From contig JAIXZY010000012.1 in assembly GCA_027489355.1 (NCBI GenBank), positions 1-64,000 on the forward strand: a stretch of DNA of 64,000 nt. Reading direction: 5' to 3'. Below, one piece after another: positions 27,843-35,730 of the stretch. Source of the DNA: Paracoccaceae bacterium (GTDB lineage: Bacteria; Pseudomonadota; Alphaproteobacteria; Rhodobacterales; Rhodobacteraceae). The notes under the pieces were generated by a model. The model ran no database searches, was not told the origin of the DNA, and saw only the letters and a program-made list of their open reading frames with translations. Each line of letters starts with the position of its first letter. Within the stretch, counting starts at the first letter, position 1. The position numbers were made by a program, and so were the translations under genes.

Positions 27843-28946
27843 TTGAATACGGTTGCGGTTGATCTGGGCGAACGCTCCTACCAGGTGCGGATCGGCCAGG
27901 GCCTTCTGGCCCGCGCGGGGGCGGAAATCGCGCCGCTTCTCCGCCGCAAGCGCGTGGCGATCGTGACCGAGGAAACCGTCGCGGCCCTGCACCTGCCCGC
28001 GCTGAAAGCCGCACTTGAGGCCGAAGGCATCGCCTCGACCGCTCTGGCCCTGCCTCCGGGCGAGGGGACGAAGAACTGGGAAAACCTGGCCCGCTGCACG
28101 GAATGGCTGCTGGAACAGAAGGTGGAACGCAAGGACGTGGTGATCGCCCTTGGCGGGGGCGTCATCGGCGACCTCGTGGGCTTTTCCGCCGCCATCCTGC
28201 GCCGGGGCGTCCGTTTCGTGCAGCTTCCCACCTCGCTTCTGGCGCAGGTCGACAGCTCGGTCGGGGGCAAGACCGGGATCAACACCGCGCAGGGCAAGAA
28301 CCTTGTCGGCGCCTTCCACCAGCCAAGCCTGGTGCTGGCCGACATCGACGTCCTCGACACCCTGACTGACCGCGACTTCCTGTCAGGTTACGGCGAAGTG
28401 GTGAAATACGGCCTTCTGGGCGATGCCGCCTTCTTCGACTGGCTGGAGGCGGATGGCCCGGCGCTTCGGGGCGGAAACAAGTCAGCCCGCCTGCGCGCCG
28501 TGACCCGGTCGGTCGAGATGAAGGCCGGGATCGTCAGCCGCGACGAGACGGAAGAGGGCGAACGCGCGCTCCTCAACCTCGGCCACACCTTCTGCCACGC
28601 GCTGGAGAAAGCCACCGGCTATTCCGACCGCCTCCTCCACGGCGAAGGGGTCGCCATCGGCTGCGCGCTCGCGTTCGAGCTGTCGTCACGCCTTGGCCTT
28701 TGCAGCCAGGAAGAACCTTCCCGCGTCCGCGCGCATCTGAAGGCGATGGGCATGAAGACCGACATCCGCGACATCCCGGGCGATCTGCCGGGGGCCGAGG
28801 CGCTGATCGCGCTGATGGGGCAGGACAAGAAGGTGGTGGACGGCAAACTGCGCTTCATCCTGGCCCGCGGGATCGGTCAGGCCTTCGTGGCCGACGACGT
28901 GCCGGGGGACAAGGTCCGCGCCGTGCTGGACGCGGCGCTGCTCTAG
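27843..28946 (+). CDS. aroB: 3-dehydroquinate synthase
   Basis: 367 aa. Converts DAHP to 3-dehydroquinate using NAD and zinc. Motifs include LPPGEGTKNWEN, IALGGGVIGDLVGF (NAD loop), LPTSLLAQVDSSVGGKTGIN, the zinc ligand Glu in GYGEVVKYG and His pair in NLGHTFCHALE and HGEGVAIGC. The start is TTG at 27843, because GGAGG at 27831-27835 is 7 nt before it, the ideal distance; a GTG at 27837, overlapping the aroK stop, would have the ribosome site almost touching it. The 3' end shares CTAG with the stop of the convergent lipoprotein gene. Confidence 0.93.
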   Translation: MNTVAVDLGERSYQVRIGQGLLARAGAEIAPLLRRKRVAIVTEETVAALHLPALKAALEAEGIASTALALPPGEGTKNWENLARCTEWLLEQKVERKDVVIALGGGVIGDLVGFSAAILRRGVRFVQLPTSLLAQVDSSVGGKTGINTAQGKNLVGAFHQPSLVLADIDVLDTLTDRDFLSGYGEVVKYGLLGDAAFFDWLEADGPALRGGNKSARLRAVTRSVEMKAGIVSRDETEEGERALLNLGHTFCHALEKATGYSDRLLHGEGVAIGCALAFELSSRLGLCSQEEPSRVRAHLKAMGMKTDIRDIPGDLPGAEALIALMGQDKKVVDGKLRFILARGIGQAFVADDVPGDKVRAVLDAALL

Positions 28947-29407
28947 AACAAAAGCTTGTAGACGTTGCCGTTGGTGTCCGACGCCTGGCCCGTGCCGCTT
29001 GCCGTGCCGGATCCTACGACGAACGTCCCCTGCACCCGCGTGCCATCGGCGCAGACGGCATAGATCTCGCCGTTGTTCACGCCTGCGACCGTGGCGATCT
29101 CGCGGCCAACTTCGCCGCCGGTCTTCTTCCAGGTCAGCGACATGCCCTTCTTGTTCGACACCGTCCGCGGCGTCAGCGACGACCAGGTGCCCGAGCATTT
29201 GCCGCGCTCCGGAAGGCGGAAGGTCAGGTTGCCAGAGGTGCCGCCGGTATTCGTCGCCGTGGCCTGGATCACCAGCGTCGGGTCCGAATCCGCGATCTCG
29301 CCCTGCAGCGGATACAGTTGCATCCGGCTGTTGCCCCCCGCGCAGGCGGCAAGCGGCAGGATCAGGCCAAGGACCAGCAGGCGGGAACGGGACATCTCGG
29401 CAGTCAT
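28943..29407 (-). CDS. Putative outer-membrane lipoprotein
   Basis: 154 aa with a lipoprotein signal: hydrophobic core LLVLGLILPLAAC, with Cys as the lipidated residue and Ala-Gly-Gly following. The mature part contains short threonine/glycine-rich beta-like stretches (NTGGTSGNLTFRLPERGKCS; VAGVNNGEIYAVCADGTRVQ) and ends in NVYKLLF. No family recognised. ATG at 29407 is the preferred start; a nearer ATG (29395) is possible. Its stop overlaps the aroB stop by 4 nt. The upstream 150 bp to the peroxidase stop holds no gene. Confidence 0.75.
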   Translation of the reverse strand: MTAEMSRSRLLVLGLILPLAACAGGNSRMQLYPLQGEIADSDPTLVIQATATNTGGTSGNLTFRLPERGKCSGTWSSLTPRTVSNKKGMSLTWKKTGGEVGREIATVAGVNNGEIYAVCADGTRVQGTFVVGSGTASGTGQASDTNGNVYKLLF

Positions 29408-29557
29408 CGGCGCGCTGAACTCCGCTTCAAGCAGGACCGGCCGCGGGGCGCATGGGCCCGCGCGCCCGGCGGCGTCTATGCGGTGATTTTGCCGCGCTGT
29501 CCAGTCCCGCCATGCTTGCGGCACCCGCCGAACACCGGGACGTGAGGACGCCGTGCC

Positions 29558-31201
29558 TCAGTCCGCGCCGGGAATGGCCGTGTCGCGCACGGCGAATGTC
29601 AGGAACTTGCGCAGGGTGGTCAGGTTGCCCGCCCCGTTTGTGCGGAGGGGGCTTTGCCGGGGGTGCCAGCGACCGCGGCCATGGGTCAGCACCGAGGCCG
29701 GGTTCAGCCGCAACAGCCCGACGATGGTCTCGGCGATGATATGGCTCGCAGTCGGGCCGATGCGCTGGCCCGTTTCGCAGGCCCGCGCCTCGCACAGGAC
29801 GTAAAGCCAGGCAGGCGTCTCCTCCAGAAGGCCAGCCGCTTCCGCCGGACCCTGCAGACCCGGCGGCAGGGCGGCGCGGATTTCGTCGGGGGTCAGAGGG
29901 GCAAGGCCATAGGCCTTCGCCAGCCGCTGCCCGAACGGGATCCGACGGTGATAGCTGCGCATCAGGTTGCGAAACAGGATCGACCCATGCACCGCCACCC
30001 GCGAATCCCCGACGAGGTTCAGCATGTCCCGCGCAAAGACCATGTCGATCTGCTCCGCCCCGCCAAGTCCCGGACGCAGCGCCGACCCCCTGCGCACCGG
30101 GCTCCGGGTCATCCGGTCCCAGTCGATCACCCAATGGTCAGGCAGGGCCAGCGTCTCGGCCGCGCTCGTCTGCATGTTCTGGTGCGAGGTGAACTCGAAC
30201 AGCTCTTCCAGTGTCGCTCCCCGGTCGCGGATCTTCCCGCCCACCCCGAAATTGGCGTTGAAGTCATAGGCTGCCCCGACCATCGAATGTCCGAAGCGGA
30301 AAGCGGCCGTGGTGAATTCCAGCGGCACTTCCCCCGGCACGGTCAGCCGTGAGGGAAAGTCCGTCAGCGGTTGCACCAGGACCGATGGCGACAGAAGCTT
30401 CGGCAGGAAGTCGTGCAGGATCAGCCAGTGATAGTGCAGCGTGACCAGCTGCCGCGCTGCCCGGAAACACGTGGCCGGGTCGGAATGCTGCGGCTCTAGC
30501 ACCGCCACCGCCTTGTTGTGAAACAGCATCAAGGCCAGGTGCAACTGGCTGACGATCAGGTTCTCGTCATTGCGCCGGTCTGCGATCAGCGCCTTGCCCT
30601 CTCCGCGCGGAATGTCCCGCGCGCCGCGGGCGTGATGCACCCTTGCCGGGTCGATGTTGCGGTCGGTGAAATGCCGGTCCGTCTCGCGCCGGGTCAGGCC
30701 CAGGCGGAACCGCTTGCCGTCGGGTTCATAAAGCGCCCGGATCTCCGGCTCGGCGCTGTCGGGACCCTCGCCGTAAAGGCTGTGCAGCGCCATCGGCTCG
30801 GGGTGTTCGTTGGCGAAATGCGCCAGGATCGTCGCCCGGTCTGCCCGCCGTGTCCGGTCCAGTCCCGGAGGGTCCACCGTCCCGATCACCCCCAGCGGCA
30901 CCGGCGCTGTCGCGCGCACCACATCTCCGACCGGGGCCGAGATGTCGTGGTTCACGAACTGCCCGAAATAGGTATAGGCCGCCGACAGCCGCATCTGCAG
31001 CACCGGCAACCCCGTCAGGGGCGCGCGCGACGCGATTTCGAACGCCTTCAGCCGCTCGCAGGTCTGGGCCGGAGTCGTCCCGGCAAAACAGCCCGCGGCC
31101 TCGTCATCGGCAAGGTCGGGGAATAGGTAGGTATAGCGCGACTGCCCCCGCGCCGTGGCAGGTCGGTCCATCAGGTAATGCGTGCCGGAAATCGCGGGCA
31201 T
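29558..31201 (-). CDS. Animal-type haem peroxidase family protein
   Basis: 547 aa. Animal haem peroxidase (peroxidase-cyclooxygenase superfamily) landmarks are clear: distal histidine in FGQFVNHD (His85) with adjacent Asp, the conserved RRNDENLIVSQLHLALMLFH block, and proximal histidine in FRFGHSMVGAAYDF (His305), followed by HN-type haem contacts. No signal peptide or type I secretion repeats, so it is probably cytoplasmic, unlike many bacterial relatives. It begins 6 bp after the YcaO stop, with GAGG spaced 5 nt before the ATG, so the two are almost certainly one transcript and coupled. A role as the oxidising partner of YcaO is inference; simple antioxidant or defence peroxidase is the alternative. 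Confidence 0.87.
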   Translation of the reverse strand: MPAISGTHYLMDRPATARGQSRYTYLFPDLADDEAAGCFAGTTPAQTCERLKAFEIASRAPLTGLPVLQMRLSAAYTYFGQFVNHDISAPVGDVVRATAPVPLGVIGTVDPPGLDRTRRADRATILAHFANEHPEPMALHSLYGEGPDSAEPEIRALYEPDGKRFRLGLTRRETDRHFTDRNIDPARVHHARGARDIPRGEGKALIADRRNDENLIVSQLHLALMLFHNKAVAVLEPQHSDPATCFRAARQLVTLHYHWLILHDFLPKLLSPSVLVQPLTDFPSRLTVPGEVPLEFTTAAFRFGHSMVGAAYDFNANFGVGGKIRDRGATLEELFEFTSHQNMQTSAAETLALPDHWVIDWDRMTRSPVRRGSALRPGLGGAEQIDMVFARDMLNLVGDSRVAVHGSILFRNLMRSYHRRIPFGQRLAKAYGLAPLTPDEIRAALPPGLQGPAEAAGLLEETPAWLYVLCEARACETGQRIGPTASHIIAETIVGLLRLNPASVLTHGRGRWHPRQSPLRTNGAGNLTTLRKFLTFAVRDTAIPGAD

Positions 31202-31207
31202 CTGGCC

Positions 31208-32263
31208 TCAATAGGGTTCGGGCAGGGTCAGTCTGCCCCCGGGACAAAGCCGCCGGAAGCGTTCGGTCCCGATCCGCCCCCGCATCGCGCACAGGCCCGG
31301 CACCAGGACGCGAAGACTGGACAAGGGGTCCCCCGGCAGCGTCAGGTCAACCGCCAGGGCAGGGTGCCCCAGCGCCGCCAGCCGGTCCAGCAGCGCCTGC
31401 CACCCGATCGGCGCGACCGGGTCCCGCAGCGGACCGGCCCGGAACTGCGGCTGCTCCAGGGTGGAGGCCCGGGCAATCCACTCCCCCGCCTCCAGGTCCC
31501 CGGCCTGCCGCGCAAGGTCCATCCCGACCTCGGTCTGCACCATCTCGGTCACCGCCGCGAGCGCCGCTTCGGCCAGAAGCGGACGCGCCGCCGCCCCCAT
31601 CGCCACGTGACGCCCGTCCACCCCCGAGGAGACGGCCGCCACCACCGGCAGGCCGATGTCCGTGGTCAGGTCCAGAAGCCGCGTCCGCCGCGCCCGCTGG
31701 TCCAGCCACCAGAACAGCCGTGGCTGCAGCGGGTCGATCACCTCCACCGCCAATGCCGCAGCCTGCCGCCCGCCATGCCACCACAGCGCAAGCGCATCCC
31801 GCTCCACGCATTCCCACAGCGCCGTCGTCAGTGCCGTCTCGCGGTCTGGTCCCGCCGCGCACCCGGTCGAGTTCGCGTCCATCCGCAGAGGCTCGCCCAG
31901 CACTGCCGCGCAGTCGAGGTAGACCTCCTGCGCCAGGACCGGCACGCTGGCCCCGCTCCGAAGATCCTCGGCCCGGCAGACCGCCATGCCGTCCTGCCGG
32001 GGCAGGCCCGCCAGCCCGGCGTGCCGCTGCGCGAGGCTGGCGCGCAGCTCCAGCGCCTCGGCCCCGGCGGCCAGCCTCGCCTGCTGCGGCGTCAGCCCCC
32101 GGCCCGCCGGCAACCGCGGCTTCAGCCCGGTGACACCCTCCTCGACAGGCACTGCCACAGCCAGGAACAAGGGCGCCTCGGGCGCCTCCAGCGGCATGAC
32201 CTCGAAATCCGGCGCCAGCGCCGCCTCCACCCGTGCTATGATCTCTGCGAGGTTCCGCCTCAT
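31208..32263 (-). CDS. YcaO-domain protein (ATP-dependent cyclodehydratase/thioamidation-type)
   Basis: 351-aa YcaO protein. YcaO enzymes phosphorylate peptide or protein backbone amides with ATP to make azolines, thioamides or amidines. The ATP/Mg site is visible: ANSTGCAAG (Ser132) and the helix ALWECVERDAL with Glu151, Glu154 and Arg155, then the conserved RVLVPGL strand. It ends LPEPY, only partly like the proline-rich tail of azoline-forming YcaOs. No TfuA, E1-like or flavin dehydrogenase gene lies nearby, so chemistry is not assigned. ATG at 32263 is chosen over 32326 because the first family-like helix (LAEIIARVEAAL) begins there. It leads the haem peroxidase gene by 6 bp. Confidence 0.87.
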   Translation of the reverse strand: MRRNLAEIIARVEAALAPDFEVMPLEAPEAPLFLAVAVPVEEGVTGLKPRLPAGRGLTPQQARLAAGAEALELRASLAQRHAGLAGLPRQDGMAVCRAEDLRSGASVPVLAQEVYLDCAAVLGEPLRMDANSTGCAAGPDRETALTTALWECVERDALALWWHGGRQAAALAVEVIDPLQPRLFWWLDQRARRTRLLDLTTDIGLPVVAAVSSGVDGRHVAMGAAARPLLAEAALAAVTEMVQTEVGMDLARQAGDLEAGEWIARASTLEQPQFRAGPLRDPVAPIGWQALLDRLAALGHPALAVDLTLPGDPLSSLRVLVPGLCAMRGRIGTERFRRLCPGGRLTLPEPY

Positions 32264-32387
32264 GCCGCCATTGGAGGCGCGATGCCGCCGCCGATCAAGG
32301 CCCGAGGCGGCGCCGGGACCGGGCATTTCACGTTGCCATCACGCAGGCGCGCCAGACTGCCGGCAAAGGGACGCAGAGGGACAGGGA

Positions 32388-32768
32388 ATGGTAGGGTTCT
32401 TCAGATTGAAAAGCGATGCGCTTGCCGACCAGGCCGCCACGGGCGAGGCGATCATGCGGGTCAGCAAGAGCGTCTTCAAGGACAGCCCGACGTCGGAGTG
32501 GAAGAAGTTCAACGACGACACCCGCGGCTGGCTGCACGCCAACGGCTACCGCTACGACGGCCCCGGTGCCGGTCCGAACGGCGAGATCCCGGACGATGTC
32601 GAGATCGTTCCGGTTTACGACACGCCGAACCGGATGCATGTCCGCATCCCCTGGTCCGGCATCCTGAAGTCCCCGCCGGTGGTCGAGGACGAACCGAACT
32701 ACGGTGCCTCGAAGGACGTGCGCTTCAAGGTGCTCCTCGCGCGCTACTTCATGCGTCACTGCCGCTAG
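32388..32768 (+). CDS. 126-aa conserved-looking protein, divergent from ycaO
   Basis: Not recognised. 126 aa, soluble, no signal peptide. An N-terminal helix (DQAATGEAIMRVSKSVF) precedes SEWKKFNDDTRGWLHANGYR, an acidic/proline-rich middle (GAGPNGEIPDDVEIVPVYD) and a C-terminal part ending KVLLARYFMRHCR with a penultimate cysteine. Codon use matches neighbours. ATG at 32388 has GAGGGACAGGGA before it. It lies 124 bp divergent from ycaO and its stop shares CTAG with the SARP gene, so it is boxed between the two. As a small neighbour of a YcaO gene it is a candidate substrate or partner; this is only a positional inference, and its length and composition are unlike typical precursor peptides. 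Confidence 0.72.
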   Translation: MVGFFRLKSDALADQAATGEAIMRVSKSVFKDSPTSEWKKFNDDTRGWLHANGYRYDGPGAGPNGEIPDDVEIVPVYDTPNRMHVRIPWSGILKSPPVVEDEPNYGASKDVRFKVLLARYFMRHCR

Positions 32769-34783
32769 GCCAGTTCCGCCGCCATCGCCCGTGCCAGGCG
32801 GATGCCCTGCTGCAGGCTCAGCCGGCCCTCGGGCCAGCAGATCGGCAGGGTGTCCAGCACCCAGGCCTCCAGCGCGTCATCGTCGGGCGGCGTCGGGGCG
32901 TCCCAGGCCTGCGCGGCCATCCGGCGGAAGGTGGCATAGGCCGCCGCCGCCCGGTCTGCCTCGCCCAGATGCGCCCAGGACGCGACGGCCCAGACCCCCA
33001 GATCGGGAAAGCCGTCGGGACATTTCTCGACCGTGGCAATGGTTGCCCTGTGGTCCCCGGCCATGAAGTGAATGCCTGCAAGGTATGCCGTGTAATATTC
33101 CGGGTAGATCGGGTTCAGCTTCACCGCCTGCAGCGCCAGCTCTCGCGCCTCATCGACATGGCCCAGGAAGCCCAGCCCGCTGGCCGCAGCGATCAGCGTC
33201 TCGGCGTCGTTCGGGTTCATGTCGACGGCCAGGCGGAAATGCGAATTGGCCCGTTCCGGCGACCGCGCGATGGCCCAGTTCCAGGCCATGCTGATGTGGC
33301 AGCGCGGATCATAGGGGTCCAGCGCAATCGCCTCACGCGCGTGCTTGAAGGCGGCGGCGCAATCGGCCTTGCGGTTGGCATAGCCGGGCCGGACCATCGC
33401 CCGCGTGCTCAGCACCTGCGCAAGGCTCGCGTGGCTGCCCGCCAGCCCGGGATCCAGTTCGATCGCGCGGCGGAACATCACTTCGGCTTCCGCATCCGCC
33501 TCGGCCGACCAGAGCCGCGACAGCTGGTGCCCCTTCAGCCACAGGTCATAGGCCACCGGGTTGCCGGGCGTGCTGCGGGCATGGCGCAGAAGCGTGATGT
33601 GGTTCACCTGGCTTGCCAGATGCGCCGCCACCGCCCCCGCGACCGAAGAGCTGATCTCCTGCAACTCGTGCTCGCCGACGGGGTAAAGTTGCGACCAGAC
33701 CTCGCTGCCGTCGCGGCAGTCGATCAGCGTGACGAACAGCTTTCCGGTTCCCGTCCGCCAGTCCAGCACGCAGTCCACCGCGAAATCCGCGTCGATGGCC
33801 CGGCCCACAGCACTAAAGTCCACCGCCGTGGCCGACGAGAAGCCCGAGGACGGCCAGGGGATCACGATCCAGCAGCGGAACTTCGACAGGCAGGATTTCA
33901 TCAGGAAGGCGAAGCCCTCGCCCAGATAGTCCTTGCTTGCATCGGTGTGCCGCGTCAGGGGCGGGCGGATGGTGATCCGGGGCGGCCCCTTGCGCGTCAG
34001 AGTTGCCATCGCAGGCTGGGGCAGCGCGGCGGCGCGGGGCAGGGCGACCTCGCCCGCCTTGATCGCGACCAGAAGCTCCTGCGAGGCTTCGCTCGGCTCG
34101 CTGTCCAGCTCTTCGGCCAGCGCCTGTTCCAGAAGCCCGTACTGCCGCAGGGCCGCCGATTGGTCGCCGCGCAGCGCATGGAAGCGCATGATGAACTGAT
34201 GCGCCAGCTCGTGGCTGGGCTCGACGCGCACCAGCTCCTCGGCCACGCGGGTGTCGGTGAAGGCATTGGCGGCAATCAGCTTTTCCAGCTCGTCCGTCAG
34301 CGCGGTCGTCAGGACGGACCGCAGCTGCGACCGCTCGACCTGAAGCCAGGCCTCGAAGACCGGCGCGCTTGGCTGGACCGGACCGAAGAGCTCGCCCCGC
34401 CACAGCGCGGCCGCCGTCAGCAGGGCATTCTGGTCATGCGCGCTGGTGGCGATCAGCTCGCGGAACCGGCGCACGTCCAGGTCGAACCCCGTGGCCTTCA
34501 GCCCGACGGTGAAGCGGTCGGCCTCGACCAGATCCCCGCCCTCCGGCCCCAGCACCTCGCGCAGCTCGCGCAAGGCCTGCCGCAGGCTCGACCGCGCCAG
34601 CGCCTCGGGCGCAGGGTCCCACAGCAGCGAGGCAAGCTTCTCGCGGTTCATCCGCTGGCCGGGGGACAGAAGCAGCAGCCCCAGCAGGCAGCGCGTCTTC
34701 CGCGTCCTGAACGCGACCTCCTCGCCCGAACCAACGCGGGCGATCCGGCAAGAGCCCAGAAGATCGACGTGGAACCGGACCAT
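32765..34783 (-). CDS. SARP-type transcriptional activator with TolB-N-like and TPR regions
   Basis: 672 aa. Residues 1-95 form an OmpR-like winged helix of the SARP kind (TRKTRCLLGLLLLSPGQRMN; SSLRQALRELREVLG), followed by a bacterial transcriptional activation domain of about 150 residues rich in tetratricopeptide-like helices. The middle (SKFRCWIVIPW to DGSEVWSQLYPV) resembles the TolB-N/adenylate-cyclase-associated module, and the C-terminal 250 residues are TPR repeats (AIELDPGLAGSHASLAQVLS). SARPs usually activate nearby clusters, so control of the peroxidase-YcaO genes is plausible but unproved. ATG at 34783 is chosen; an in-frame GTG at 34828 would add 15 residues. A GGAGGT/ACCTCC hairpin (34787-34806) precedes the start. 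Confidence 0.82.
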   Translation of the reverse strand: MVRFHVDLLGSCRIARVGSGEEVAFRTRKTRCLLGLLLLSPGQRMNREKLASLLWDPAPEALARSSLRQALRELREVLGPEGGDLVEADRFTVGLKATGFDLDVRRFRELIATSAHDQNALLTAAALWRGELFGPVQPSAPVFEAWLQVERSQLRSVLTTALTDELEKLIAANAFTDTRVAEELVRVEPSHELAHQFIMRFHALRGDQSAALRQYGLLEQALAEELDSEPSEASQELLVAIKAGEVALPRAAALPQPAMATLTRKGPPRITIRPPLTRHTDASKDYLGEGFAFLMKSCLSKFRCWIVIPWPSSGFSSATAVDFSAVGRAIDADFAVDCVLDWRTGTGKLFVTLIDCRDGSEVWSQLYPVGEHELQEISSSVAGAVAAHLASQVNHITLLRHARSTPGNPVAYDLWLKGHQLSRLWSAEADAEAEVMFRRAIELDPGLAGSHASLAQVLSTRAMVRPGYANRKADCAAAFKHAREAIALDPYDPRCHISMAWNWAIARSPERANSHFRLAVDMNPNDAETLIAAASGLGFLGHVDEARELALQAVKLNPIYPEYYTAYLAGIHFMAGDHRATIATVEKCPDGFPDLGVWAVASWAHLGEADRAAAAYATFRRMAAQAWDAPTPPDDDALEAWVLDTLPICWPEGRLSLQQGIRLARAMAAELA

Positions 34784-34896
34784 GCAGGAGGTCCCCCAAA
34801 ACCTCCCCCCTAGGGTTGCACAAGGCACAAGTCCCTTTCAACAGGCGAGAGCCGGGATGCCTGACCTATTCCGCCGGTTGTGGCGTTCCGGTAGCG

Positions 34897-35730
34897 TCAC
34901 GCGGTGAAGAACGGCCGGGCCTTCATCGTCTCTGGCACCGGAACGCCCATCCGGGTCAGGATCGACGGGGCCAGCGCAAGTTGATCAAGAACCTCATCTT
35001 CGCCCGGCAAGTCGCTGTCGCCAAAGTAATAAAAGGCAAAGTCCCTCTGGTCCTCACCCGTCCCGCCATGATGCCCCCGCGCGTCCTGACCGTGATCGGC
35101 GGTCACGATCACCTCGTACCCGCCCTGCCGCCAGCGGTGGATCCACGGCGCCAGGATTGCATCCATGTGGAAGCACGCGTGGTCCATCTCCTCGCAGTCA
35201 TGGAAAAAGCGGTGGCCCATGCTGTCCAGCGTACAGGTGTGCAGGATGCCGTAGTCGATCCCCTTGACCTCGCAGAGCCGCGTCAGCGTGCCGAAAAGGT
35301 CGTAGTCCGAGGGCGTCATCTGGTTTGCATGCCCATAGCCATGCATCGTGTGGAACCGGCCATGCGTGATCGGCCCCTCCGGCTCATCGTATTCGATGTC
35401 GCGGACCACATCGAACGGCGCGCGGTTGAAGAACTCGGACCAGTAGCTGTGCGTGACCGCCCCGGTGGTCTTCCCCGCCTTCGTCAACTCGCTGAACACA
35501 TCCGGGAAATTCACCCGCCGGATGTCCGCATTGTCCCAGATGTGATGCTTCTGCGGCGGGACGCCCGTGTGGATCGACGCATAGCACGAGGCCGAGGTCG
35601 AGGGCAGCACCGCCCGCATCCGCCTGACCCGCGCCTCGCCCTGTTCGACCCAGCCTTCCAGGTTGCCGAAGAGCCGCCGCCAGTTCCGGTAAGGCACCCC
35701 GTCCAGGATGATCAGAAGCAGTTTTGTCAT
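34897..35730 (-). CDS. Alkaline-phosphatase-superfamily hydrolase (nucleotide pyrophosphatase/phosphodiesterase type)
   Basis: 277 aa. Metal-binding residues of the type I phosphodiesterase family are visible: Asp in LLIILDGVP, the nucleophile region LPSTSASCYASIHTG, HTCTLDSMGHRFF and the C-terminal TADHGQDARGHHGG. Likely acts on a phosphodiester, nucleotide or phosphonate; substrate cannot be inferred. It is the last gene of a minus-strand run, downstream of the peptide ABC operon and separated from it by a paired hairpin (35763-35806), so it may be partly read through from that operon. No signal peptide, so cytoplasmic. Confidence 0.85.
   Translation of the reverse strand: MTKLLLIILDGVPYRNWRRLFGNLEGWVEQGEARVRRMRAVLPSTSASCYASIHTGVPPQKHHIWDNADIRRVNFPDVFSELTKAGKTTGAVTHSYWSEFFNRAPFDVVRDIEYDEPEGPITHGRFHTMHGYGHANQMTPSDYDLFGTLTRLCEVKGIDYGILHTCTLDSMGHRFFHDCEEMDHACFHMDAILAPWIHRWRQGGYEVIVTADHGQDARGHHGGTGEDQRDFAFYYFGDSDLPGEDEVLDQLALAPSILTRMGVPVPETMKARPFFTA

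What the first reader, a model, noticed from the sequence alone, without database searches (positions are those of the whole stretch)
29558..32263. YcaO enzyme coupled to an animal-type haem peroxidase
The peroxidase starts 6 bp after the YcaO stop, with its ribosome site at the YcaO stop. YcaO activates amides in peptides or proteins; peroxidases oxidise tyrosine, thiols or halides. The pair has no TfuA, E1-like or dehydrogenase partner and no exporter, so it fits no named RiPP class that I know. A possible scheme is ATP-dependent backbone modification followed by one-electron oxidation of the same substrate in the cytoplasm.
Basis: partly seen in the sequence, partly recalled or inferred. 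Interest (0 to 1): 0.85.

Follow-up and report, generated by a model that had tools for sequence, protein, structure and literature searches.

The report
YcaO–peroxidase module modifying a protein tail
Many alphaproteobacteria carry the same four genes together: a peptide-modifying enzyme (YcaO), an animal-type peroxidase, a regulator, and a small protein ending in a conserved cysteine that is probably what the two enzymes modify, which looks like an undescribed kind of peptide-modification pathway.

Summary
Confirmed: a YcaO gene (31208-32263, -) is followed after 6 bp by an animal-type haem peroxidase (29558-31201, -). The association is general: YcaO and peroxidase lie in one neighbourhood in 35 loci of at least eight alphaproteobacterial families, including an annotated Mesorhizobium huakuii plasmid. 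Two further partners recur: a TPR regulator (window 32765-34828) and a small protein (window 32388-32768, 126 aa), the latter found in 34 of the 35 loci (the other is cut by a contig end) and fused to the peroxidase in one. It ends in a conserved Cys, usually second from last. Its profile resembles nitrile-hydratase-like leaders (NHLP) of RiPP precursors and retrieves Cys-rich NHLP precursors beside fused azole-type YcaOs. The YcaO is closest to azoline-forming TruD/LynD. Best reading: a RiPP-like system in which YcaO acts at the C-terminal Cys and a haem peroxidase stands in for the usual flavin dehydrogenase. The module is well supported; substrate role and chemistry are inferred. Two loci have YcaO, small protein and regulator without a nearby peroxidase. 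Searches of the held open-access papers found no description.

The parts
29558..31201 (-). animal-type haem peroxidase (peroxidase-cyclooxygenase superfamily), 547 aa
   Evidence: Pfam PF03098; Q81, H85, R210, H305 invariant in 17 aligned YcaO-linked peroxidases; profile matches lacto-, eosinophil and myeloperoxidase in the PDB
31208..32263 (-). stand-alone YcaO, closest to azoline-forming D proteins, about 351 aa; the longest ORF runs to 32326
   Evidence: Pfam PF02624; start supported by relatives; profile of 17 module YcaOs matches TruD E=4.3e-63 and LynD E=1.5e-60; all 11 close relatives in A1 end in PEP followed by Tyr or Phe
32264..32387 (.). intergenic region between the YcaO-peroxidase operon and the divergent small gene
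   Evidence: divergent arrangement in all 11 close relatives with a YcaO match to the full gene
32388..32768 (+). 126-aa small protein, candidate substrate: NHLP-like body and C-terminal helix ending ARYFMRHCR; Cys125 is its only Cys
   Evidence: 27 aligned small proteins, P88 and C125 invariant; NHLP resemblance; AF2 model mean pLDDT 83.5, lower (51) at the very end; helices 12-27, 37-43, 45-51, 109-122
32765..34828 (-). regulator: BTAD/SARP-type N-terminus with TPR repeats, 687 aa from GTG 34828 (an inner start is possible)
   Evidence: Pfam BTAD 55.8 bits and TPR_17 over cut-off; a regulator cluster in 20 of 21 compared loci by BLAST, the 21st being the window, where my gene caller missed it

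Best explanation
It is a four-gene, RiPP-like protein modification system. The small protein (window 32388-32768) is the substrate: a folded body related to nitrile-hydratase-like leader peptides, ending in a helix whose last residues carry a conserved Cys. The TPR regulator controls the locus. The stand-alone YcaO uses ATP to activate the backbone amide next to that Cys, most simply closing it to a thiazoline. The cytoplasmic haem peroxidase then uses peroxide to oxidise the same tail, taking the place of the flavin dehydrogenase of ordinary azole pathways (thiazoline to thiazole), or oxidising or cross-linking the Cys or a nearby Tyr. Shown here: the module, its distribution, the conserved tail, conserved haem-pocket and YcaO residues, and the kinship of the YcaO to azoline formers. 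Inferred: substrate role, target residue, regulation, order and chemistry. As no exporter or leader peptidase recurs, the product is probably a modified intracellular protein rather than a secreted antibiotic.
For: YcaO and peroxidase in one neighbourhood in 35 loci. Small protein in 34 of 35; next to the peroxidase on one strand in 20 of the 22 loci outside the Tabrizicola group that hold both, counting the L026 fusion. Cys second from last in 21 of 25 small proteins and within the last five residues in 25 of 25, against 5 and 20 of 255 other genes of like size. Profile A8 in 394 family genomes: 9 hits, 8 clear, all 8 in genomes with the module; the ninth is spurious. None of 28 peroxidase loci without YcaO has the small protein by profile. 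NHLP kinship: HHalign P 1.1e-4 for all, 1.4e-3 for the DYT-type set, 3.6e-5 for the window's clade, 2.1e-7 for L050/L052, and 0 of 60 shuffled profiles as high in each set; the small-protein profile retrieves NHLP precursors ending AGLCCCW, AGRCCC or AGRCCCCC beside fused YcaOs in five loci. YcaO matches TruD/LynD, and the SagD model is the best NCBIfam model for all 8 module YcaOs scanned; it lies outside the 32-row clade that holds the TfuA-linked YcaOs. AU test rejects one clade of YcaO-linked peroxidases, p=0.005, so the pairing may have arisen more than once. Precedent: the YcaO MprC acts on NHLP precursors and the flavin oxidase MprD makes the thiazole (PMC12455567, abstract and passages).
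Against: No product or activity is known. L036 and L040 have YcaO, small protein and regulator without a peroxidase nearby; L036 has an M74-peptidase-like protein there, so the peroxidase is not essential to the core. No small protein reaches the NHLP model TIGR03793: of ten scanned only L061 gave a hit (E=0.065), and two more gave none; the window's has no Pfam or NCBIfam family. No double-Gly cleavage site. Foldseek finds no PDB match to its model. Several small proteins were first picked out with a C-terminal-Cys filter (L018, L019, L026, L031, L043). Profile A8 misses the cyclase-type members (it found 8 of 15 module genomes of the family), so absence by profile is weak evidence; the cyclase-type set was not compared with NHLP on its own (timed out). 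McbD, also an azoline former, matches the YcaO profile only weakly. Several YcaOs are very diverged (long branches L031, L035, L043, L053). The AU result rests on a quick tree with long branches. The fused peroxidase L026 lacks the distal Arg.
Confidence: 0.55

Rival explanations
1. The peroxidase is the effector rather than a maturation enzyme. The small protein is its dedicated partner (inhibitor, activator or targeting factor), and YcaO modifies the small protein's tail to switch the peroxidase on or off.
For: Small gene beside the peroxidase on one strand in 20 of 22 loci outside the Tabrizicola group, one a fusion. In the window's group the small protein is better conserved (67-90% to the window) than YcaO (62-71%) or peroxidase (58-68%).
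Against: 28 peroxidase loci without YcaO show no small partner by profile, so the fold as such needs none. L036 and L040 keep YcaO and small protein without a peroxidase nearby. NHLP kinship points to a modification substrate.
Confidence: 0.2
2. YcaO does other chemistry (thioamide, amidine or ATP-dependent cleavage) and the peroxidase acts on Tyr or free Cys, for example joining the tail Tyr and Cys.
For: The window-type and DYT-type tails keep a Tyr five positions before the Cys (Y120 in at least 90% of A8); haem peroxidases commonly make tyrosyl radicals (recalled).
Against: That residue is His in L050/L052 and Ile or Phe in the cyclase-type tails. YcaO is closest to azoline formers and outside the clade with the TfuA-linked YcaOs.
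Confidence: 0.2
3. Neighbours by inheritance only, with unrelated functions.
For: In the Tabrizicola group other neighbours (phosphodiesterase, lipoprotein) are syntenic too.
Against: In 21 loci the surrounding genes change while YcaO, peroxidase and regulator stay and the small protein stays by profile; gene order varies; a fusion exists; the pairing may have arisen more than once.
Confidence: 0.02

Closest known systems
NHLP-type azole RiPPs with YcaO cyclodehydratase and flavin oxidase (MprC/MprE/MprD; PMC12455567, abstract and passages)
   Same: NHLP-like substrate, azoline-type YcaO, an oxidase for a second step
   Different: Haem peroxidase instead of flavin oxidase; no E1 or RRE domain found in the window YcaO; a Cys at the very C-terminus with no double-Gly site or separate core; no recurrent exporter or peptidase; in the window's group a strongly conserved precursor
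TOMM/LAP clusters as surveyed by Cox et al. 2015 (PMC4603692, passages only)
   Same: YcaO D-protein with a local precursor and an oxidation partner
   Different: No recurrent C protein, FMN dehydrogenase or exporter; the passages give bottromycin and trifolitoxin as examples of a D protein thought to act without a C protein
YcaO-TfuA thioamidation clusters
   Same: Alphaproteobacterial YcaO loci, at least one with a BTAD regulator (Rhizobium sp. TH2)
   Different: No recurrent TfuA; YcaO in another clade
Peroxidase-cyclooxygenase superfamily (lactoperoxidase, myeloperoxidase, peroxinectin A)
   Same: Profile match and conserved haem-pocket residues
   Different: No signal peptide seen by eye; Asn where the mammalian enzymes have the haem-linked Asp (recalled); genetically tied to YcaO

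Membership tests
TOMM/LAP (azole-forming YcaO RiPP) | YcaO D-protein with conserved nucleotide-site residues | tested here: met
   G75, G77, E90, E93, G155, E172, E175, R176 invariant in 17; TruD/LynD matches; that such residues form the ATP site is recalled
TOMM/LAP (azole-forming YcaO RiPP) | curated SagD-family model reached | tested here: not met
   TIGR03604 is the best model for 8 of 8 scanned but below its 219-bit cut-off: 103 bits for the window, 200 for L117 at most
TOMM/LAP (azole-forming YcaO RiPP) | E1-like/ocin-ThiF or RRE partner | tested here: not met
   Only the YcaO domain in the window protein and in nine relatives apart from one sub-cut-off Pup match; no such gene recurs. 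The nine relatives have 57-156 unassigned residues before the YcaO domain, so a hidden RRE there is possible
TOMM/LAP (azole-forming YcaO RiPP) | FMN dehydrogenase and exporter | tested here: not met
   Only peroxidase, regulator and YcaO clusters recur in more than 5 of 21 loci; ABC ATPases in 5
TOMM/LAP (azole-forming YcaO RiPP) | azol(in)e in the product | not testable with these tools
   needs mass spectrometry
NHLP/proteusin precursor | match to TIGR03793 | tested here: not met
   9 of 10 without a hit, L061 E=0.065, 13.1 bits against a 50.9-bit cut-off; 2 of 2 without a hit
NHLP/proteusin precursor | profile-level kinship to NHLP | tested here: met
   HHalign P 1.4e-3 to 2.1e-7 in four sets, 0 of 60 shuffles as high in each; small-protein profile retrieves NHLP precursors. 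Cyclase-type set not tested on its own
NHLP/proteusin precursor | double-Gly site and separate core | tested here: not met
   Tails run straight into the Cys
YcaO-TfuA thioamidation system | adjacent TfuA and YcaO of that clade | tested here: not met
   No TfuA recurs; tree
Peroxidase-cyclooxygenase superfamily | distal Gln/His/Arg and proximal His | tested here: met
   Q81, H85, R210, H305 invariant in 17 aligned; roles recalled from mammalian enzymes; the Arg and proximal regions are aligned to them, the distal Gln/His region is not

The most novel reading that the evidence does not exclude
A new class of RiPP-like pathway in which an animal-type haem peroxidase is a maturation enzyme: YcaO and peroxidase together build an oxidised heterocycle or cross-link at the C-terminal Cys of a folded NHLP-derived protein, giving an intracellular protein with a built-in, peroxide-dependent cofactor or sensor group. 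The pairing was assembled more than once.
Probability: 0.35. Interest if true: 0.87.

Novelty: new variant of a known kind. Interest (0 to 1): 0.76.

Why it matters
In the YcaO pathways read here the oxidation step is done by flavin enzymes (PMC4603692 and PMC12455567, passages); a haem peroxidase related to lactoperoxidase and myeloperoxidase in that place would be new chemistry. It would also give a function to some of the uncharacterised animal-type peroxidases of bacteria. The small protein with its conserved terminal Cys makes the question testable with one co-expression and one intact-mass measurement.

Tried and rejected
Considered and rejected: YcaO-TfuA thioamidation (no recurrent TfuA, other clade). 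Cyclooxygenase-type peroxidase: by eye the window protein has no Tyr at the COX position (recalled motif, not tested further). Hitchhiking. A precursor after the peroxidase in the window: the 150-bp gap 29408-29557 was noted but not screened; the lipoprotein beyond it is conserved in the Tabrizicola group but did not form a cluster across distant loci.

Led nowhere: Pfam and NCBIfam for the small protein; PDB sequence search with A8, 0 hits; Foldseek on the P0003 model, 7 hits, lowest E 4.7; a second model, of L050's small protein, had mean pLDDT 56.9 and was not searched, though it also shows several helices followed by a C-terminal helix. A plasmid search with the M. huakuii small protein found only itself.

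Selection and dropped rows:'s 36 rows, the two G110 rows are one frame and one row is the window, leaving the 34 neighbourhoods fetched. Of one search's hits, 40 neighbourhoods were fetched; 11 genomes with YcaO frames over 700 aa (fused enzymes) and G650 were not, so they were not checked for peroxidases. Of, every row down to E=1.8e-51 was fetched (34 neighbourhoods); 22 weaker rows, mostly in very long frames, were not. The 25 small proteins include L016 and L061 (no peroxidase seen) and leave out L036, L040, L154, G318 and the other close relatives.
Full report
Observation. The window holds, on the minus strand, a YcaO gene directly followed by an animal-type haem peroxidase gene. Six bases separate the YcaO stop from the peroxidase ATG and a GAGG overlaps the stop. 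Relatives align from about the ATG at 32263, so YcaO is most likely 31208-32263. The genome gives one YcaO match; a second, 28% identical peroxidase lies on another contig.

Close relatives. Searching genomes and MAGs with the YcaO gave 12 loci. In 10 of 12 the peroxidase follows directly; L006 has its first 54 codons before the contig ends; L015 is a distant partial match without it. The group (Tabrizicola, Rhodobacter and relatives) keeps the order phosphodiesterase, BTAD/TPR regulator, divergent small gene, YcaO, peroxidase, lipoprotein where the contig reaches that far. Identity to the window is 67-90% for the small protein (11 relatives), 62-71% for YcaO (10) and 58-68% for the peroxidase (10), so the small protein is the best conserved of the three. 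All 11 YcaOs of alignment A1 end in PEP followed by Tyr or Phe.

Wider survey, family. A profile of the YcaO matched 31 of 394 genomes of the family. I fetched the 34 neighbourhoods other than the window. Thirteen hold a peroxidase of the same family (L016 among them is the same locus as L009). Listing their genes showed a repeated set: YcaO, peroxidase, a small protein of 126-223 aa, and a large regulator, of BTAD/TPR type or, in L020 and L028 by Pfam and in others by eye, with a guanylate-cyclase-like domain in front. In L026 the small protein is fused to the end of the peroxidase. In a further genome, G318, YcaO and regulator lie 12-13 kb from a peroxidase and a small protein ending VADYCILNCA. 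L036 and L040 have YcaO, regulator and small protein (tails SCAQCT and DYTVRQCL) but no peroxidase in the stretch; genome-wide, G389 has only a relative in a 788-aa frame on another contig and G342 only a marginal match. In L036 the gene beside the small protein has a carboxypeptidase-regulatory-like and an M74-peptidase-like stretch.

Wider survey, class and phylum. In 385 genomes of the class 48 matched; of 40 fetched neighbourhoods five hold a peroxidase: L050, L051, L052, L053, L055; 12 hit genomes, 11 of them with fused enzymes, were not fetched. Starting from the peroxidase, 38 of 398 phylum-wide genomes matched; of 34 fetched neighbourhoods six hold YcaO: L090, L108, L109 (YcaO reduced to a fragment), L111, L117, L118. 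A plasmid of Mesorhizobium huakuii NZP2235 has the set with NCBI names: peroxidase family protein WP_322419535.1, hypothetical WP_322419534.1 (133 aa, tail LGDYVMSRCK), hypothetical WP_322419533.1 (TPR and Trans_reg_C matches below cut-off), YcaO-like WP_322419532.1. In all, 35 loci have YcaO and peroxidase within about 4 kb: the window, 10, 12 further, five, six, and L154; they belong to at least eight family codes (f1, f56, f93, f96, f128, f171, f174, f179). In 34 the small protein was found; L041 is cut by a contig end. Outside the Tabrizicola group it lies beside the peroxidase on the same strand, or is fused to it, in 20 of 22; in L050 and L052 it is divergent from YcaO. In 21 compared neighbourhoods BLAST clusters recur as follows: peroxidase in 20, regulator in 20 (the window's own, P0004, was missed by my gene caller), YcaO in 18, ABC ATPases in 5, small protein in 3; the small proteins are too diverged for BLAST and were tied by profile.

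The small protein. In 27 aligned small proteins only Pro88 and Cys125 are invariant. Among 25 representatives the Cys is second from last in 21 and within the last five residues in all 25; among 255 other genes of 100-230 aa from the same loci the figures are 5 and 20. Five members were picked with a Cys filter (L018, L019, L026, L031, L043), but others were found by position, annotation or profile (window, L020, L022, L028, L035, L042, L040, L154, G318). Twelve of the 25 have no other Cys. A profile search of 394 family genomes gave nine hits: eight clear ones, all in genomes with the module, and one spurious. The profile is not exhaustive: it found 8 of 15 module genomes of that sample and missed the cyclase-type ones. 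Among the 34 peroxidase neighbourhoods only the six with YcaO gave a small-protein hit.

Kinship to NHLP. The stretch IPDDVEIVPVYDTPNRMHVRIPW resembles the end of nitrile-hydratase-like leaders. Against eight NHLP stretches from other alphaproteobacteria, profile comparison gave P 1.1e-4 for all small proteins (5.9e-5 with another option), 1.4e-3 for the DYT-type set, 3.6e-5 (probability 72%) for the window's clade and 2.1e-7 (94%) for L050/L052; 0 of 60 column-shuffled profiles reached the real score in any of the four sets. The small-protein profile also retrieves, with E 1e-4 to 8e-3, NHLP precursors ending in AGLCCCW, AGRCCC or AGRCCCCC beside fused YcaOs in L024, L025, L029, L030 and L034. 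TIGR03793 itself is not reached (L061 E=0.065). The model of P0003 has three helices, a short strand and a C-terminal helix ending at residue 122; NHLPs are described as having an N-terminal trihelical bundle and an L(X)4L motif (PMC12455567, passages). L050 and L052 have LREKDL and LNDEDL before the tail (by eye).

The enzymes. YcaO profile A6 matches the cyanobactin heterocyclases TruD (E=4.3e-63), LynD and MusD far better than E. coli YcaO (8.5e-11); McbD, also an azoline former, matches weakly (3e-4). The SagD model is the best NCBIfam model for all eight module YcaOs scanned, though below its cut-off. In an 81-row tree one clade of 32 holds the YcaOs next to which I saw TfuA-like genes; all 26 peroxidase-linked YcaOs lie in another part together with 11 rows that are mainly fused enzymes and with L036, L037, L040 and L061 (quick tree). 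The peroxidases keep Q81, H85, R210 and H305 in 17 of 17 aligned; L026, left out there, lacks the Arg. In a 57-row tree the YcaO-linked peroxidases fall into several groups, and holding them as one clade is rejected (p-AU 0.005, quick tree, long branches present).

Mechanism. Best reading: YcaO activates the amide before the tail Cys and closes a thiazoline; the peroxidase carries out the following oxidation. In the MprC/MprE/MprD pathway an NHLP leader directs the YcaO and a flavin oxidase makes the thiazole with a total of -20 Da (PMC12455567, abstract and passages). Here the peroxidase stands where the flavin oxidase would be. The lack of a recurrent exporter, peptidase or double-Gly site, and the strong conservation of the small protein in the window's group, suggest that the modified protein stays in the cell. 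A rival is that the peroxidase is the effector and the small protein its YcaO-controlled partner.

Print. Full-text searches of the held open-access library for YcaO with peroxidase (31 papers, 30 listed), the same with precursor peptide (1), RiPP with heme peroxidase and biosynthe (18, 17 listed), proteusin with peroxidase (3) and cyclodehydratase with peroxidase (4) showed no paper linking the two by title or start of abstract. One candidate was checked by passages; its peroxidase is a Dyp-type enzyme with encapsulin (PMC8776678). The library lacks most subscription papers, so earlier description cannot be excluded.

Noticed in passing
L024:10102-10362, L025:9533-9991, L029:10345-10620, L030:4839-5147, L034:7773-8045: Loci of the family with fused YcaO enzymes carry NHLP precursors whose cores are bare Cys runs (LCCCW, RCCC, RCCCCC) right after Ala-Gly.
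   Followed up: partly
L036:10370-13156: YcaO, regulator and small protein (tail SCAQCT) with an M74-peptidase-like, carboxypeptidase-regulatory-like protein where the peroxidase would be.
   Followed up: partly
L042:6659-7339: A gene upstream of the peroxidase on the same strand with a weak Amidase_2 match (E=0.0024, below cut-off).
   Followed up: no
L090:6236-13855: Two peroxidases flank the regulator and YcaO; the second groups with the YcaO-less peroxidases in the tree.
   Followed up: partly
L061:1-3211: A second YcaO locus in G622, cut by the contig start, with a 96-aa NHLP-like small protein ending TICGCAD and a cyclase-like regulator.
   Followed up: partly
L155:4627-8824 (Rhizobium sp. 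TH2 pTH2a): A YcaO-TfuA locus also has a BTAD regulator, so this regulator type serves more than one kind of YcaO locus.
   Followed up: no
G000 contig 49, L120:6490-7890: The window's genome has a second animal-type peroxidase; no YcaO or small-protein hit in its 14.5-kb neighbourhood.
   Followed up: partly
28943-29407 and 34897-35730: A lipoprotein and a phosphodiesterase-family protein flank the module in the Tabrizicola group (78-93% identical to the window's) but formed no cluster across the distant loci.
   Followed up: no
L109:10707-10991: YcaO reduced to a fragment while peroxidase, small protein and regulator have open frames.
   Followed up: no
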